DNA of 36,795 bases, taken from Paracoccaceae bacterium. GTDB lineage: Bacteria > Pseudomonadota > Alphaproteobacteria > Rhodobacterales > Rhodobacteraceae. Positions within the stretch are counted from its first letter, which is position 1. Every line of letters starts with the position of its first letter. A model generated the notes under the pieces. The model saw only the letters and a list, made by a program, of their open reading frames with translations. It was not told where the DNA came from and did not search any database. Below, one piece after another: positions 25,572-33,120 of the stretch. The position numbers were made by a program, and so were the translations under genes. The stretch lies in the NCBI GenBank assembly GCA_013139635.1, contig WTAL01000093.1, positions 1 through 36,795 of the forward strand, given 5' to 3'.

Positions 25572-25985
25572 ATGCTTTCACCAAAGCGCACACGATTTCG
25601 CAAGCAGTTTAAAGGTCGTATCCACGGCCAAGCTAAAGGCGGAACAGACCTAAACTTCGGCACATATGGCCTAAAAGCTGTTGAGCCGGAGCGGGTAACC
25701 GCACGTCAGATCGAATCTGCCCGTCGCGCCATGACCCGTCACATGAAACGCCAAGGCCGTGTATGGATCCGCATCTTCCCTGATGTGCCCGTAACCGCCA
25801 AGCCTATCGAAGTTCGGATGGGTAAGGGTAAAGGCTCTGTTGACCGTTGGGTCTGCAAAGTGAAGCCCGGCCGGATGATGTTTGAGATCGACGGTGTTTC
25901 TGAAGAAGTTGCTAAAGAGGCCCTGCGTCTTGCCGCAATGAAACTGCCAGTAAAAACCCGCACGATTACGCGCGAAGACTGGTAA
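25572..25985 (+). CDS. rplP: 50S ribosomal protein L16
   Basis: L16 binds near the A site of the peptidyl transferase centre and helps tRNA positioning. The 137-residue protein starts [19 protein letters not shown] and contains [37 protein letters not shown] and a C-terminus of [16 protein letters not shown] at 25558-25563 supports the ATG. In most bacteria rpmC follows immediately; here a strong terminator and a fic gene come next. Confidence 0.98.
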
Positions 25986-26009
25986 ACGGCTTTAGCTGTC
26001 AAGAATTAG

Positions 26010-26041
26010 AAAACCCCCAGCCGAAAGGCTGGGGGTTTTTT
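26010..26041 (+). terminator. Intrinsic terminator after rplP
   Basis: CCCCCAGCC (26014-26022), GAAA tetraloop, GGCTGGGGG (26027-26035), six Ts (26036-26041), with AAAA before the stem. It is very strong and ends the rplB-rplP unit inside what is normally one operon. Confidence 0.95.
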
Positions 26042-26093
26042 GGTTTGATTTGATGCAACTTGGTTGTGTTTCAAATTTGACGAGATTGTTTTC

Positions 26094-26107
26094 ACAACGG
26101 TCGTTGT
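26094..26107. promoter_or_regulatory. Inverted repeat upstream of fic
   Basis: ACAACG-GT-CGTTGT is a perfect 6-base inverted repeat. It lies in the AT-rich 230-base gap between the rplP terminator and fic and may be a regulator site. Confidence 0.4.
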
Positions 26108-26159
26108 ATGAGTTTCATGTCGCGCAAAGCCTGTTGTGTCGCACGAAACTGGAAAAGCC

Positions 26160-26238
26160 TTACACAAATTAGTTTGTAGCAGAAAAAAATACCACAAACC
26201 GATTAGTGTTGCAAAATATTGTAAAAACGTTACACAAA
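26160..26238 (+). promoter_or_regulatory. Repeated TTACACAAA boxes upstream of fic
   Basis: TTACACAAA occurs at 26160-26168 and 26230-26238, 70 bases apart, with a related ACCACAAA at 26191-26198. TTGCAA (26209-26214), 16 bases and TACACA (26231-26236) could form a weak promoter overlapping the last box. The boxes look like operator half-sites, perhaps for autoregulation by the winged-helix domain of Fic. Confidence 0.4.
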
Positions 26239-26271
26239 GCGCAGGATGTTAACTGATGCAGGGCAAATTAA

Positions 26272-27405
26272 ATGGCGAGAAGTATGGAAAGCTACGATCA
26301 CAGCAATGTCGTCGATTATCACTACGGCTGTTTTCCTCCTAGTGACCTAGACTTTAGTCGTTTGATTGAGCCTTTAGCAAGAGCGCAGGATGCTATTTCC
26401 CGCTATGATCAAATGCTTTTATCGCTCCCCAACAGCGAATTGCTTCTGGCACCTTTGCGCCAGAACGAAGCCGTCATTTCATCTCGAATGGAAGGAACGA
26501 TTTCGACGGTTGACGAAGTGATGATTTACGAAGCTGAGAGTGAAGATGACTCAGCACCTAAGCGCGCAAGAGTTGATACTATCGAAGTCGCGCTCTATAG
26601 CGCAGTACTTCGCCGCGCTCAGGTTGCCGTTGATGAAGGTGAGCCTATTAACGAAGGACTTATAAGAAATGCACATCGTATATTGCTAAGTTTTGGGAGG
26701 GGCGCAAGTAAATCTCCAGGCCAGTATAAAGTCGAGCAAAATTATATTGGCGATGATCTCCGCAAAGTCATTTATTTCAAACCAATCAGCCCAATACATT
26801 TGCAACCCGCAATGCAAGATTTGATGGGATTTATTGGGTCTTCGGAGATGCTACATTTGTTTAAGGTTGCAATCGCCCATGTCGAATTTGAAGCTTTGCA
26901 CCCGTTCAACGATGGCAACGGTAGAATTGGACGGTTATTGATTACATTACTTTTGTGGAAATACGGCCTAATACACAAACCTCACTTTTATATCAGTGCA
27001 TTTTTTGAAAGTAATAAGGAGGAGTATATAGAGTTGATGCGGGCGGTATCAAGGGATGACGACTGGACAAGTTGGACGGCATTTTTCTTAACGGCCATCG
27101 CCGAGCAAGCAGAAAGCAATCTGCATACAGCCCAAAGGATCACCGCTCTATATGATGAAATGAAGGAGCCTTTTAGGGAGATGTCGGGATCAAAGTGGCA
27201 CATTGCAGCTCAAGACAGTATTTTTGAAAATCCCGTTTTCAAAAACAGGCAGCTAATCAAGCGCTCTGGGATGCCTAAACATGTAGCAACGAGAATCACA
27301 AAGCTACTACATGAGGGCGGATTATTGCGAGAGCTTAGCCCAGCAAGTGGTCGACGTGGTGCATTGTATATGTTCGAACCGCTTATGGAAATCGTAAGGG
27401 CGTAA
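26272..27405 (+). CDS. Class II Fic family protein (probable AMP-transferase)
   Basis: Fic enzymes transfer AMP (less often another phosphate group) to hydroxyl side chains of target proteins. The 377-residue protein has an N-terminal helical region with the inhibitory motif SxxxEG (S70-G75, E74), the flap around GQYKVEQNYIG (150-160) and the full active-site motif HPFNDGNGRIGR (210-221, H210 catalytic). A C-terminal winged-helix-like region (about 310-377) has RQLIKRSGMPKHVATRITKLL. It therefore fits the Fic/DUF4172-free, self-inhibited class II type. Codon use and base composition look more AT-rich than the neighbours, which suggests transfer. Start may be ATG 26272 or 26284; neither has a strong ribosome binding site. 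No separate antitoxin gene is adjacent, consistent with built-in inhibition. Confidence 0.9.
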   Translation: MARSMESYDHSNVVDYHYGCFPPSDLDFSRLIEPLARAQDAISRYDQMLLSLPNSELLLAPLRQNEAVISSRMEGTISTVDEVMIYEAESEDDSAPKRARVDTIEVALYSAVLRRAQVAVDEGEPINEGLIRNAHRILLSFGRGASKSPGQYKVEQNYIGDDLRKVIYFKPISPIHLQPAMQDLMGFIGSSEMLHLFKVAIAHVEFEALHPFNDGNGRIGRLLITLLLWKYGLIHKPHFYISAFFESNKEEYIELMRAVSRDDDWTSWTAFFLTAIAEQAESNLHTAQRITALYDEMKEPFREMSGSKWHIAAQDSIFENPVFKNRQLIKRSGMPKHVATRITKLLHEGGLLRELSPASGRRGALYMFEPLMEIVRA

Positions 27406-27424
27406 GCCACCTCAACATCCCCCC

Positions 27425-27453
27425 TTGCCAACCCCCCGAATCGAGCCTATAGA
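27425..27453 (+). promoter_or_regulatory. Promoter driving rpmC and the spc genes
   Basis: TTGCCA (27425-27430), a 17-base spacer with CCCCCC, TATAGA (27448-27453). It lies 20 bases after the fic stop and 84 before rpmC. Its C-rich spacer resembles that of the rplB promoter. Confidence 0.65.
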
Positions 27454-27536
27454 AGCGACTTCGAAGTCTGACTCCACTGGAATCGGGGTGACCTCTATGG
27501 GGCCTGCCAGTGATGTTGAAAAAAGGAAAATAGGCA

Positions 27537-27740
27537 ATGAACGCCACTGATTTACGGGCTAAGACGCCCGAAGAGCTTAAAACTGAGCTTGAAACGTTGA
27601 AGAAAGAATCCTTCAACTTGCGTTTTCAGGGGGCCACTGGCCAGCTGGAAAACACTTCGCGTATGCGCACGGTTCGCCGCGCCGCTGCCCGTGTAAAAAC
27701 CATTTTGAACGAAAAGGCCGCGCAAGCGGCTGCTGAATAG
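27537..27740 (+). CDS. rpmC: 50S ribosomal protein L29
   Basis: L29 lies by the exit-tunnel opening next to L23. The 67-residue protein is a two-helix hairpin with [20 protein letters not shown] and [20 protein letters not shown], the family signature. AAAGGA (27523-27528) serves the ATG. The gap to rpsQ is nine bases. It starts a new transcription unit here because fic separates it from rplP. Confidence 0.97.
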
Positions 27741-30929: not shown

Positions 30930-31517
30930 ATGGCAAGAGAAGACAATAATCGCCGGGGTAAACGTCGCGATCGCGATGAAACACCGGAATTTGCCGATCG
31001 CTTGGTAGCGATCAACCGCGTGTCGAAAACGGTAAAGGGCGGTAAGCGCTTCGGATTTGCGGCATTGGTGGTTGTAGGTGATCAGAAAGGCCGCGTGGGC
31101 TTTGGTAAAGGTAAAGCAAAAGAGGTTCCTGAAGCAATTCGGAAAGCCACTGAGCAAGCCAAGCGCCAGATGATCCGCGTGCCACTACGTGAGGGTCGGA
31201 CCCTGCACCACGACATGTTCGGCCGCCACGGCGCCGGCAATGTAGTGATGCGGACAGCCCCTGCGGGTACTGGCATTATTGCTGGTGGCCCAATGCGTGC
31301 GGTTTTTGAAATGCTTGGTTTGCAGGACGTGGTGGCAAAATCCATCGGTTCGCAAAACCCGTATAACATGATCCGCGCCACTATGGACGGCCTGAAAAAG
31401 ATGGGTAGCCCGCGCAACGTAGCGCAGCGTCGTGGTAAGAAGGTCTCTGACATTCTGCCCGCCCGTAACGAAACCCCAGCAGCTGCTTCGGAAGAAGCCG
31501 CACCAGCTGAAGCTTAA
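30930..31517 (+). CDS. rpsE: 30S ribosomal protein S5
   Basis: S5 contributes to mRNA entry and decoding fidelity. The 195-residue protein has a charged N-terminus, the S5 double-stranded-RNA-binding fold (about 20-85, [20 protein letters not shown] and [20 protein letters not shown]), then [19 protein letters not shown]. Its tail is Ala/Glu-rich, a few residues longer than usual. AGGAG (30920-30924) supports the ATG. Confidence 0.98.
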
Positions 31518-31528
31518 GGAGCAACACC

Positions 31529-31717
31529 ATGGCAAAAACCATCGTTGTAAAGCAGATTGGCTCGCCAATTCGCCGCCCAAAAGACCAGCTGGCTACGCTA
31601 AAAGGTCTGGGCCTCAACAAGATGCACAAAACCCGTGAGCTTGAAGACACACCGTCAGTACGCGGCATGGTCAGCAAGATTTCACACATGGTTGTGATTA
31701 TTGAAGAGAAGGGCTAG
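31529..31717 (+). CDS. rpmD: 50S ribosomal protein L30
   Basis: L30 is a small 50S protein. The 62-residue product begins [20 protein letters not shown] and has [20 protein letters not shown], the family core. AAGGAG (31516-31521) serves the ATG. In most bacteria rplO follows directly; here two hairpins, a strong terminator and an unrelated gene come between. Confidence 0.97.
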
Positions 31718-31725
31718 CGCCTTTT

Positions 31726-31744
31726 GGTGGGGTAAAACCCCACC
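31726..31744 (+). promoter_or_regulatory. Hairpin directly after rpmD
   Basis: GGTGGGG (31726-31732), loop TAAAA, CCCCACC (31738-31744). It precedes the main terminator and may stabilise the 3' end of the upstream mRNA. Confidence 0.5.
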
Positions 31745-31758
31745 CTACGAAATTGAAA

Positions 31759-31791
31759 ACGCCTCGAGGGAAACCTCGGGGCGTTTTTTTT
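31759..31791 (+). terminator. Intrinsic terminator after rpmD
   Basis: ACGCCTCGAGG (31759-31769), GAAA tetraloop, CCTCGGGGCGT (31774-31784) with one T-G wobble, followed by eight Ts (31784-31791). It ends the spc transcript before rplO. Confidence 0.95.
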
Positions 31792-31868
31792 GTTTGCACT
31801 ATGCTTTTTCTTTTCACTGGCTTACCTTTGCTTCGATTTTTTTACGAGATTGAAGTAAGGAGCAGATA

Positions 31869-32501
31869 GTGACAATTCCAACTAAGTATTCGAACATATT
31901 TATCCCGGTCAAAAGCTTTTTGAATTCTTACCGCGCGCTTTCCGACGGAAGGAGAGCAATTATGCTACTTGAAGCACACACCAACGAGTCATCGTTCCTA
32001 TTTTCAGATTGGAAAATTAATTGGATTGCAGCCTGCACCCTTTTACGATCTTCGATTGATTTGTTTCAACAAGATCAGGCTTCGTGCCTAGATGCAAAAA
32101 TTCGTGATGAAATACGGAATGAATGGCACGCGATAAAAAGAGATAAGGAGAACCATTCAATATTCTGGGATTTCCTGAAGAAAGAGCGAGATAGTATTAT
32201 TCACCATTATGAATGGCCTGCCTATGAGGTCTGGATGGACGAAAATGAGCAATACCGCCCCGCAAGAATTAGTATTGCGGACCTTAGACTTGAAAATGAG
32301 AAAAACGTATTGTTGATGAAATCGGGGCGTTTCGAGGGGGAAGACTCAGTGGAATTACTCGGAAGCGCGGGCGCATGGGTGGAGGATAGAATTTTTTCGG
32401 CAATCCGGCGGGCTGGCTATTCCCCTGATGAGGAAAGAAATATCGTAAATTTTTCAAAGAGACCGAAAGCCGGACCTACTTTGTTGAGTGGAAAGATATG
32501 A
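31869..32501 (+). CDS. Hypothetical protein with R-x4-H (HEPN-like) motif
   Basis: I do not recognise this 210-residue protein. It starts at GTG with a good ribosome binding site (AAGGAG, 31857-31862). The sequence looks alpha-helical and soluble, with no signal or membrane segment. A stretch WDFLKKERDSIIHHYEW (100-116) contains R107-x4-H112, the spacing of the catalytic motif of HEPN ribonucleases, and follows WIAACTLLRSSIDLFQ (52-67). Such an F-x-x-ERD-x-I-H-Y pattern also occurs in unrelated uncharacterised proteins, so this is only a hint. Its base composition is clearly more AT-rich than the ribosomal genes around it, suggesting recent arrival. No partner gene is adjacent. Confidence is for a real gene, not a function. 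Confidence 0.75.
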   Translation: MTIPTKYSNIFIPVKSFLNSYRALSDGRRAIMLLEAHTNESSFLFSDWKINWIAACTLLRSSIDLFQQDQASCLDAKIRDEIRNEWHAIKRDKENHSIFWDFLKKERDSIIHHYEWPAYEVWMDENEQYRPARISIADLRLENEKNVLLMKSGRFEGEDSVELLGSAGAWVEDRIFSAIRRAGYSPDEERNIVNFSKRPKAGPTLLSGKI

Positions 32502-32536
32502 GTGCTTGACTGAAACTACATGGGCCCCGTTTAGGC

Positions 32537-32565
32537 TTGATCATATGGGGATACACGTCTATATG
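32537..32565 (+). promoter_or_regulatory. Promoter driving rplO-secY-adk
   Basis: TTGATC (32537-32542), 17-base spacer, TATATG (32560-32565). It lies 99 bases before rplO and follows the inserted gene. Confidence 0.6.
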
Positions 32566-32664
32566 CCCCAAGTGGATTTCAAAAACCCACAGAATCATAT
32601 CAACGCCGTGTTGCTCTTGGGTTGACGCTCATCAGGGGACTTCCGGCAAATTAGGAGAAGCGTC

Positions 32665-33120
32665 ATGAAATTGTTTGAACTACACGATAACCCCGGTGCA
32701 ACTAAATCCAAGAAACGCAAAGCGCGTGGTCCGGGTTCGGGCAAGGGTAAAATGGCTGGCCGTGGTATCAAGGGTCAGAAGTCTCGCTCGGGTGTGGCGA
32801 TTAATGGCTACGAGGGTGGCCAGATGCCACTTTACCAACGCCTGCCAAAGCGCGGCTTTAACATGCGCAACCCTAACAAATATGCGGTTGTAAACTTCCT
32901 CGTGCTGCAAAAGTTCATTGATGCTGGCAAGATCGACGCCTCTAAGCCAATCACCGAAGACGTGATGCTCGCGTGTGGCCTTGTGCGCCGCAAGCAGCAA
33001 GGCGTGCGCCTGCTGGCCAAAGGTGAGCTGACGTCTAAGCTCGACATCACGGTAACTGGCGCCTCTAAGGGTGCGGTTGAGGCTGTTGAAAAAGCTGGCG
33101 GCAAGATCACGCTTGCGTAA
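32665..33120 (+). CDS. rplO: 50S ribosomal protein L15
   Basis: L15 is a late-assembly 50S protein. The 151-residue protein starts [20 protein letters not shown] and has [20 protein letters not shown] and [18 protein letters not shown]-like sequence ([18 protein letters not shown]). TAGGAG (32652-32657) supports the ATG. It now heads a transcript with secY and adk. Confidence 0.97.

What the first reader, a model, noticed from the sequence alone, without database searches (positions are those of the whole stretch)
25986..27536. Class II Fic gene splitting rplP from rpmC
A full-length Fic protein with intact catalytic and inhibitory motifs sits where rplP and rpmC normally touch. It is preceded by the strongest terminator in the area and followed within 20 bases by a new promoter. 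The gene and its upstream region look AT-rich beside the flanking genes, pointing to transfer. Fic relatives (for example Doc) can act on translation factors, so a link with the surrounding genes is possible but not shown.
Basis: partly seen in the sequence, partly recalled or inferred. Interest (0 to 1): 0.7.

Follow-up and report, generated by a model that had tools for sequence, protein, structure and literature searches.

The report
Portable Fic gene with operator array
A foreign toxin-like enzyme gene, carrying its own row of evenly spaced DNA-binding sites, has settled into a variable slot inside an otherwise rigid cluster of ribosomal-protein genes; the row of sites suggests that the enzyme switches its own gene off.

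Summary
Confirmed: an intact 377-aa SoFic-type Fic gene (26272-27405), AT-rich, lies between rplP and rpmC, after a strong hairpin and 19 bases before a promoter-like site. These frame a slot found across the family: rplP-rpmC spans 93-17,424 bp in 76 genomes, while three neighbouring junctions hardly vary. The three genus genomes with a whole slot hold this Fic, an unrelated Fic, and a Panacea-type antitoxin. Codon use and 79-87% identical relatives elsewhere support transfer; no recombinase was noticed. A link to ribosomal genes is not supported.

New here: this Fic subfamily carries an upstream array of CAA-N6-TTG palindromes spaced alternately 30 and 40 bp, in 43 of 48 relatives examined above about 47% identity (also a Bacteroidota plasmid and provirus contigs) and in 0 of 10 at 45% or below. 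A search by array alone in 295 genomes hit 12, all at this Fic. Half-sites tend to change with the C-terminal winged helix. Best reading: Fic represses itself through the array, a new variant of the CccR precedent. Binding, repression and enzyme activity were not tested. Side finding: a covarying rpmC leader RNA, not in Rfam.

The parts
25572..25985 (+). rplP (L16), left flank of the slot
   Evidence: Pfam Ribosomal_L16 179 bits
26010..26039 (+). terminator-like hairpin after rplP, the left edge of the slot
   Evidence: 13-pair stem, listed by the scan on the minus strand; T-run after the GC stem on the plus strand; similar hairpins follow rplP in relatives by eye; genus-level DNA similarity ends at about 26047
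26048..27409 (+). variable segment (approximate borders): operator-like array plus fic
   Evidence: genus-level blastn similarity stops at about 26047 and resumes at 27407 to 27413; the Thalassovita copy matches 26090-27408
26093..26108 (+). operator-like palindrome 1 (CAA starts at 26095, -177)
   Evidence: CACAA-N6-TTGTG with 1 mismatch, CAA-N6-TTG exact
26123..26138 (+). operator-like palindrome 2 (-147)
   Evidence: 1 mismatch, CAA-N6-TTG exact; 30 bp after site 1
26163..26178 (+). operator-like palindrome 3 (-107)
   Evidence: 1 mismatch, CAA-N6-TTG exact; 40 bp after site 2
26193..26208 (+). operator-like palindrome 4, degenerate (-77)
   Evidence: 1 mismatch that breaks the CAA-N6-TTG core; 30 bp after site 3
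26233..26248 (+). possible fifth site, left half only (-37)
   Evidence: CACAA 40 bp after site 4, right half not recognisable; weak
26272..27405 (+). fic: class II SoFic-type Fic protein, 377 aa
26479..26496 (+). inhibitory helix motif S70-S-R-M-E74-G75
   Evidence: S70, S71, E74 and G75 invariant in 30 aligned sequences
26899..26934 (+). Fic catalytic motif HPFNDGNGRIGR (210-221)
   Evidence: ten of twelve letters invariant in 30 sequences
27199..27399 (+). C-terminal winged helix (residues 310-376), proposed operator-binding domain
   Evidence: AF2 model mean pLDDT 92.3, helix-strand-helix-helix-strand-strand at 310-368; weak MarR_2 hit below cut-off; DNA binding inferred
27424..27452 (+). 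rpmC promoter-like CTTGCC-N17-CTATAG, right edge of the slot
   Evidence: in the sequence, recurs by eye in relatives; not scored, not transcript-mapped; consensus recalled
27455..27536 (+). structured rpmC leader RNA; hairpin core 27475-27512
   Evidence: 12 pairs, 98.4% of 838 cells paired, 7 pairs with changes on both sides in 70 sequences; no Rfam family
27537..27740 (+). rpmC (L29), right flank of the slot
   Evidence: Pfam Ribosomal_L29 85.8 bits

Best explanation
A horizontally acquired cassette, made of an operator-like array and one SoFic-type class II Fic gene, sits in an insulated slot of the ribosomal-protein cluster. The slot is framed by the rplP terminator and by rpmC's own promoter and leader, so inserts there should not disturb either ribosomal unit. 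The Fic protein is inferred to bind the evenly spaced CAA-N6-TTG palindromes with its C-terminal winged helix, as dimers that fill the array cooperatively, and so to repress its own gene. This would keep a potentially toxic AMP-transferase low until a trigger, perhaps phage infection, frees or activates it. Shown by sequence: the intact gene, its motifs and predicted fold, the variable slot, the foreign composition, and the array with its tight link to this subfamily. Inferred: that Fic itself binds the array, that binding represses, AMP transfer, its target, and the defence role.
For: Array statistics: 88 exact sites in 28 upstream regions against 5.1 simulated (maximum 15), and 85 pairs at 30, 40 or 70 bp against 0.008 (maximum 1). 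Search by array alone: 12 of 295 family genomes hit, all 12 directly upstream of a Fic, reversed control 0 of 295. In viral contigs 12 of 21 array hits lie directly upstream of such a Fic, one of them known only from a 23-residue piece at a contig edge. Protein-first: 23 of 28, 16 of 16 at 50% identity or more (12 of these contigs are also), and 4 of 4 at 48% or more, including a Bacteroidota plasmid. Absent in 10 of 10 relatives at 45% or below and in 9 of 9 more distant Fics. Outer half-site letters differ between two winged-helix types: CA in 48 of 64 half-sites, against AT or GT in 39 of 62. Fold: full-length match to SoFic 3zcn, Z 40.2, 350 residues, 2.3 A; PADLOC SoFic 333 bits. Slot. 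Transfer. Precedent: CccR binds and represses its own promoter (PMC9755527, abstract and passages).
Against: No binding, repression, AMP transfer or phage protection was measured. In the window's own copy all four sites are imperfect: three keep CAA-N6-TTG but miss one outer letter, the fourth breaks the core. Five of 28 relatives show no 30/40/70 pair, and the exact three-site pattern finds only 12 of the 22 family genomes that carry a Fic of 47% or more. The half-site to winged-helix correspondence is incomplete: a third, mixed group of ten relatives has CA in only 15 of 50 half-sites, and members such as L043 and L044 have CACAA sites with a different helix; it also follows phylogeny. CccR's operator is different: two 10-bp boxes 26 bp apart. 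A 2023 paper says that DNA binding by SoFic had not been shown (PMC10628234, passage). The NCBIfam SoFic model scores 139 bits against a cut-off of 550. The route of entry is unexplained: no target-site duplication was noticed by eye.
Confidence: 0.63

Rival explanations
1. The array is bound by another regulator of the host or of a mobile element, and Fic is only the regulated gene.
For: Many toxin genes are controlled by separate regulators (general knowledge). Nothing here identifies the binder, and half-site type and winged helix correspond only in part.
Against: The array accompanies this Fic in Rhodobacteraceae, a Shinella replicon, a Bacteroidota plasmid and provirus contigs, and the three-site pattern appears nowhere else in 295 family genomes. 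Eight of 21 viral-contig hits have no Fic in the DNA held, and one lies at the 3' side of a 39% Fic.
Confidence: 0.2
2. The array is not an operator but a recombination or maintenance element (iteron-like or att-like) that moves the cassette.
For: Regular repeats occur in replication and partition sites (general knowledge). The cassette occurs on plasmids and provirus contigs.
Against: Sites keep similar distances from the start codon (about -177/-147/-107/-77 or -141/-111/-71/-41). Nothing resembling a recombinase gene lies between the array and rpmC.
Confidence: 0.07
3. Fic belongs functionally to the ribosomal cluster and modifies a ribosomal protein or translation factor.
For: Location; Doc, a distant relative, acts on EF-Tu (recalled, no call). 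A second, unrelated Fic sits in the same slot in G006.
Against: Slot cargo is miscellaneous: 71 Pfam families in 86 scanned proteins. Close relatives of this Fic have no tested ribosomal gene in the flanks held. Composition is foreign.
Confidence: 0.05
4. The slot cargo, Fic included, is inserted by a dedicated site-specific recombinase that targets the rplP-rpmC junction.
For: Strong variability at this one of four junctions compared; sharp borders in the genus.
Against: No integrase is among the 25 best-represented Pfam families of 71 found in 86 cargo proteins (the other 46 were not shown and 23 larger proteins were not scanned). GC of the gap is close to that of the flanking ribosomal genes in many genomes, more like turnover by recombination between conserved flanks.
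Confidence: 0.1

Closest known systems
SoFic, protein adenylyltransferase SoFic (PDB 3eqx, 3zcn, 3zec; PADLOC SoFic)
   Same: Fic core with C-terminal winged helix and N-terminal inhibitory motif; full-length fold, Z 40.2 over 350 residues; PADLOC SoFic 333 bits. Sofic is reported as anti-phage and toxic (PMC12249575, passages).
   Different: 22-23% identical to the solved SoFic chains and below the NCBIfam cut-off. No array upstream of nine more distant Fic relatives in the family sample. The E. coli Sofic has a small partner gene, AS1, just downstream; here only 131 bases separate fic from rpmC and they hold rpmC's promoter and leader.
CccR of Yersinia pseudotuberculosis (PMC9755527)
   Same: Class II Fic with C-terminal HTH that represses its own gene by binding its promoter (abstract and passages).
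   Different: CccR binds two 10-bp inverted boxes with a 26-bp spacer. Here there are usually 3 to 5 palindromes, up to 14 or more, with 6-bp spacers in a 30/40-bp rhythm. Nothing here suggests secretion; not tested.
CbFic2 of Coxiella burnetii (PDB 8cil, PMC10628234)
   Same: Fic with N-terminal inhibitory motif and C-terminal HTH whose DNA binding changes its activity (abstract and passages); structural match Z 26.9 with rmsd 9.2.
   Different: Tested with random DNA; DUF4172 N-domain; acts on a eukaryotic host protein.
Doc/Phd and FicT/FicA toxin-antitoxin pairs
   Same: Fic fold (5jff, EcFicT with EcFicA, Z 13.0; Doc recalled).
   Different: Separate antitoxin gene there; here the inhibitory motif is in the same protein, and one search shows no second gene on the plus strand in the segment (one 63-aa minus-strand ORF, 26006-26197, spans the hairpin and array and is probably not a gene).

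Membership tests
Class II Fic protein | Fic motif HPFx(D/E)GNGRxxR | tested here: met
   HPFNDGNGRIGR at 210-221
Class II Fic protein | inhibitory (S/T)xxxE(G/N) helix N-terminal to the Fic core | tested here: met
   S70-S-R-M-E74-G75, S70, E74 and G75 invariant in 30 sequences; definition recalled
Class II Fic protein | AMP transfer to a protein | not testable with these tools
   needs a bench assay
SoFic | full-length fold with C-terminal winged helix | tested here: met
   3zcn Z 40.2, rmsd 2.3, 350 aligned
SoFic | curated NCBIfam equivalog score (NF046030) | tested here: not met
   139.2 bits against a cut-off of 550; so not filed as a SoFic equivalog, only as SoFic-type
SoFic | PADLOC SoFic model | tested here: met
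   333 bits, residues 16-375 of 377; the model carries no cut-off in this tool
SoFic anti-phage system | protection against phage | not testable with these tools
   needs a bench assay
Self-repressing Fic (CccR kind) | inverted repeats in its own promoter region | tested here: met
   promoter position itself not mapped
Self-repressing Fic (CccR kind) | the protein binds these repeats and represses | not testable with these tools
   only partial half-site and winged-helix correspondence seen
Self-repressing Fic (CccR kind) | CccR's operator, two 10-bp boxes with N26 | tested here: not met
   the repeats here are CAA-N6-TTG at 30/40 bp
Ribosomal-protein leader RNA (rpmC) | conserved, covarying structure before a ribosomal gene | tested here: met
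Ribosomal-protein leader RNA (rpmC) | binding of a ribosomal protein and feedback | not testable with these tools
   not measured

The most novel reading that the evidence does not exclude
This Fic subfamily is a one-gene switch. Fic dimers assembled on the 30/40-bp array form a cooperative repressor that is also held catalytically off (or in a deAMPylating state, as proposed for DNA-bound CbFic2), and release from the array turns the same molecules into active AMP-transferases. The array would act both as operator and as a molecular safety store for the toxin; arrays of 14 or more sites would be larger stores.
Probability: 0.2. Interest if true: 0.8.

Novelty: new variant of a known kind. Interest (0 to 1): 0.58.

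Why it matters
SoFic-type Fics are an anti-phage and toxin group whose regulation was called elusive in 2025 by a paper that proposes a small partner protein, AS1 (PMC12249575, abstract start, passages); a 2023 paper states that DNA binding by SoFic had not been shown (PMC10628234, passage). A conserved operator-like array that travels with the gene makes both points directly testable. Separately, a family-wide cargo slot inside the S10-spc ribosomal cluster, framed by a terminator and an rpmC leader RNA that Rfam does not hold, shows how a supposedly rigid gene cluster can host foreign genes.

Tried and rejected
Rfam: no family at gathering score in the window. In the permissive scan of 25950-27600, 19 of 21 hits fall on or around the terminator hairpin and all are far below their gathering scores; taken as hairpin noise. 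No hit covers the rpmC leader.

RNA folding of 25986-26271 gave z -5.07, but that stretch includes the terminator and DNA palindromes also fold; the parts were not separated and it was not used as evidence. Folding 27406-27536 alone gave z -0.20; only the alignment showed structure in the rpmC leader, and the structure tested was derived from the same alignment.

The first AF2 model, from 10 sequences, was poor (pLDDT 55) and was dropped for the 30-sequence one.

'Defence island' reading of the slot: rejected for the family as a whole. Of 109 representative cargo proteins of 130 aa or more, 86 were scanned; the 23 left out are from the two 17-kb gaps (one of them was scanned), and shorter ORFs were left out. 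Pfam cargo is miscellaneous. PADLOC at 1e-10 matched 29 models, many of them several models of one system. Pfam reports Fic in 3 of the 86, but a motif search of all 229 cargo ORFs found the catalytic motif in only 2, the window and G006; the third was not traced.

In viral contigs, 8 of 21 array hits have no Fic in the DNA held and one lies at the 3' side of a 39% Fic; chance or contig ends, not resolved. Of the 21 relatives, L212 (37 residues) was left out. Of nine plasmid hits, four were fetched. Phage records hold five matches, of 27 to 29% identity.

Literature, search listings: rplP-rpmC insertion, Fic autoregulation, rpmC leader, S10-operon hotspot. Only the CccR and CbFic2 papers bear on the array, and nothing on the slot or leader was recognised in those listings; most subscription journals and all bioRxiv preprints are outside that library. 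Papers opened, abstract or passages only: PMC9755527, PMC12249575, PMC10628234.

Full report
1. What is there. The ORF 26272-27405 encodes 377 aa. Pfam finds Fic_N and Fic above cut-off. The inhibitory motif (S70, S71, E74, G75) and the catalytic motif (210-221) are intact and nearly wholly invariant in 30 aligned relatives. rplP ends at 25985 and rpmC starts at 27537. A 13-pair hairpin lies at 26010-26039; the scan lists it on the minus strand, and on the plus strand a T-run follows its GC stem. A stronger one lies at 31755-31788. A promoter-like CTTGCC-N17-CTATAG starts 19 bases after the fic stop codon.

2. Foreign origin. Among 192 ORFs of at least 150 aa from 20 stretches of the same genome (236,881 bases), Fic has GC 45.1% (4.7th percentile), GC3 43.8% (2.6th) and a codon score at the 1.0 percentile; 26046-26271 is 38% GC. 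The ORF list is mechanical and may hold false ORFs. In the other 12 genus genomes no full-length match exceeds 33% identity; the best pieces are 55% over the C-terminal 164 residues in G005 and two short ones (50% over 38 and 39% over 41 residues) in G008 and G007. The G005 piece is not on the contig that holds its rplP, and no rpmC was found in G005, so its place relative to the slot is unknown. Relatives of 79-87% identity occur in eight records of the public genome set, among them Thalassovita and a MAG named Hoeflea; none has any of the window's ribosomal genes tested in the flanks held. DNA similarity to the Thalassovita copy runs from 26090 to 27408, that is, the array and the gene.

3. 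The slot. In the family sample (295 genomes) rplP was found in 267 and rpmC in 276. Only the best-scoring 150 places of each were listed, which favours nearer relatives; 88 genomes were in both lists, and in 75 both genes lay on one contig (13 of 88 were split between contigs). With G003 added, 76 gaps were read: 93 to 17,424 bp, 62 of them at least 750 bp. Control junctions in the same DNA: rpsC-rplP 2 to 31 bp, rpmC-rpsQ -1 to 15 bp, rpsQ-rplN 51 to 137 bp with one of 418 and one not readable. Three genus genomes have the whole slot on one contig: the window; G006, with an unrelated 460-aa Fic on the opposite strand; and G003, with a SocA/Panacea protein and a small ORF. Hairpins after rplP and promoter-like sites before the leader recur by eye (not scored). 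The leader is present in 71 of the 76 gaps (70 aligned, and L076 found by model) and absent from the five shortest, L071 to L075; hairpin-like sequence does follow rplP in several of those five. Genus-level similarity stops at about 26047 and resumes at 27407 to 27413, so the variable piece in the window is the array plus fic. The most frequent cargo family is in 34 of 62 gaps; its scanned member is a 2OG-Fe(II) oxygenase, on either strand (17 minus and 13 plus of the 30 listed).

4. The array. Upstream of fic and its close relatives are CACAA-N6-TTGTG palindromes at similar distances from the start codon. Reading only CAA-N6-TTG, the wider subfamily has the same 30/40/30 rhythm with other outer letters. 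In 28 upstream regions of 260 bp there are 88 exact sites against 5.1 in first-order simulations (maximum 15 in 1000 runs), and 85 pairs at 30, 40 or 70 bp against 0.008 (maximum 1); 23 of 28 have at least one such pair; nine more distant Fics have one site and no pair. Of the five without a pair, L037 and L044 miss by one base, L033 keeps two sites 100 bp apart, L045 has one site and L030 none. A pattern of three sites alone, searched in 295 genomes, hit 12, each directly upstream of a Fic listed; the reversed control hit none. It thereby finds 12 of the 22 sampled genomes with a Fic of 47% identity or more. In viral contigs the same pattern hit 21 stretches: 12 directly upstream of such a Fic (one seen only as a 23-residue piece at a contig edge), one at the 3' side of a 39% Fic, eight without a Fic in the DNA held. 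A protein-first scan of viral contigs gave 20 usable relatives: all 16 at 50% identity or more have the array, one with 14 sites in strict 30/40 alternation, and the four at 39-44% have none; 12 of the 16 are contigs also found by the array pattern. Shinella, Paracoccus and Riemerella copies from the plasmid collection and one genome of the phylum outside the class have it (Riemerella with 40/29/40); six further relatives at 41-45% have none. Together 43 of 48 above about 47% identity and 0 of 10 at 45% or below; these are sequences, not independent events. In the window's own copy all sites are imperfect.

5. Who binds. Residues 310-376 form a winged helix in a confident model (mean pLDDT 92.3), and the whole model fits SoFic 3zcn with Z 40.2. 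The close group, with helices like KNSQLIKRSGMPKHVA, has CA-CAA half-sites (48 of 64); the group with RNDRFVERSGIP has AT- or GT-CAA (39 of 62); but a mixed third group has CA in 15 of 50, and L043 and L044 have CACAA sites with a different helix. The correspondence also follows phylogeny, so it supports but does not prove that Fic is the binder. CccR, a class II Fic with an HTH, represses itself through its promoter (PMC9755527, abstract and passages). CbFic2 is proposed to change from AMPylation to deAMPylation on DNA binding (PMC10628234, abstract and passages). Sofic is toxic when leaky (PMC12249575, passages). From these I infer an autorepressed AMP-transferase cassette with a probable defence or toxin role.

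6. The rpmC leader. In 70 leaders, 12 pairs form in 98.4% of 838 cells, 7 pairs show changes on both sides, and 70 cells carry double changes against 16.1 in shuffles; slid versions drop to 41-61% paired. The structure came from the same alignment. A covariance model finds the leader in all eight genus genomes in which rpmC was found. In 190 genomes drawn from the class, searched with strict filters, 3 hit, once each, all of this family. Rfam has no matching family. Its role, perhaps feedback by a ribosomal protein, is inferred.

7. Verdict.

Noticed in passing
window 27455-27536: Covarying leader RNA before rpmC, found only in this family among 190 class genomes and not in Rfam.
   Followed up: yes
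window 31517-32665: A second AT-rich insert in the same cluster: terminator-like 31755-31788, then a 210-aa ORF (31869-32501) of GC 43%, no Pfam, NCBIfam or PADLOC match, no match in the other 12 genus genomes.
   Followed up: partly
L087-L139, rplP-rpmC gaps: A protein family whose scanned member is a 2OG-Fe(II) oxygenase (PF13759) sits in 34 of 62 gaps near rplP, on either strand. E. coli has a 2OG oxygenase that hydroxylates L16 (recalled), so a ribosomal target is a thought to test.
   Followed up: partly
G006 = L107:1435-2814 -: An unrelated 460-aa Fic occupies the same slot in another species of the genus.
   Followed up: partly
L182 and L202 (same provirus contig): Array of at least 14 palindromes in strict 30/40 alternation upstream of a Fic.
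   Followed up: partly
own genome, G000:C213 and C184: Three further Fic-domain matches in the same genome, two of them about 0.7 kb apart.
   Followed up: no
L077, L091, L093, L098, L102, L114, L127 just after rplP: Short palindromes ending in C(G/A)CCCTAC, REP-like, right after rplP in several gaps (by eye).
   Followed up: no
G001, G002, G004, G005, G012: Contigs end within 0.2 to 1.2 kb downstream of rplP in five genus genomes, which would fit strain variation at the slot.
   Followed up: no
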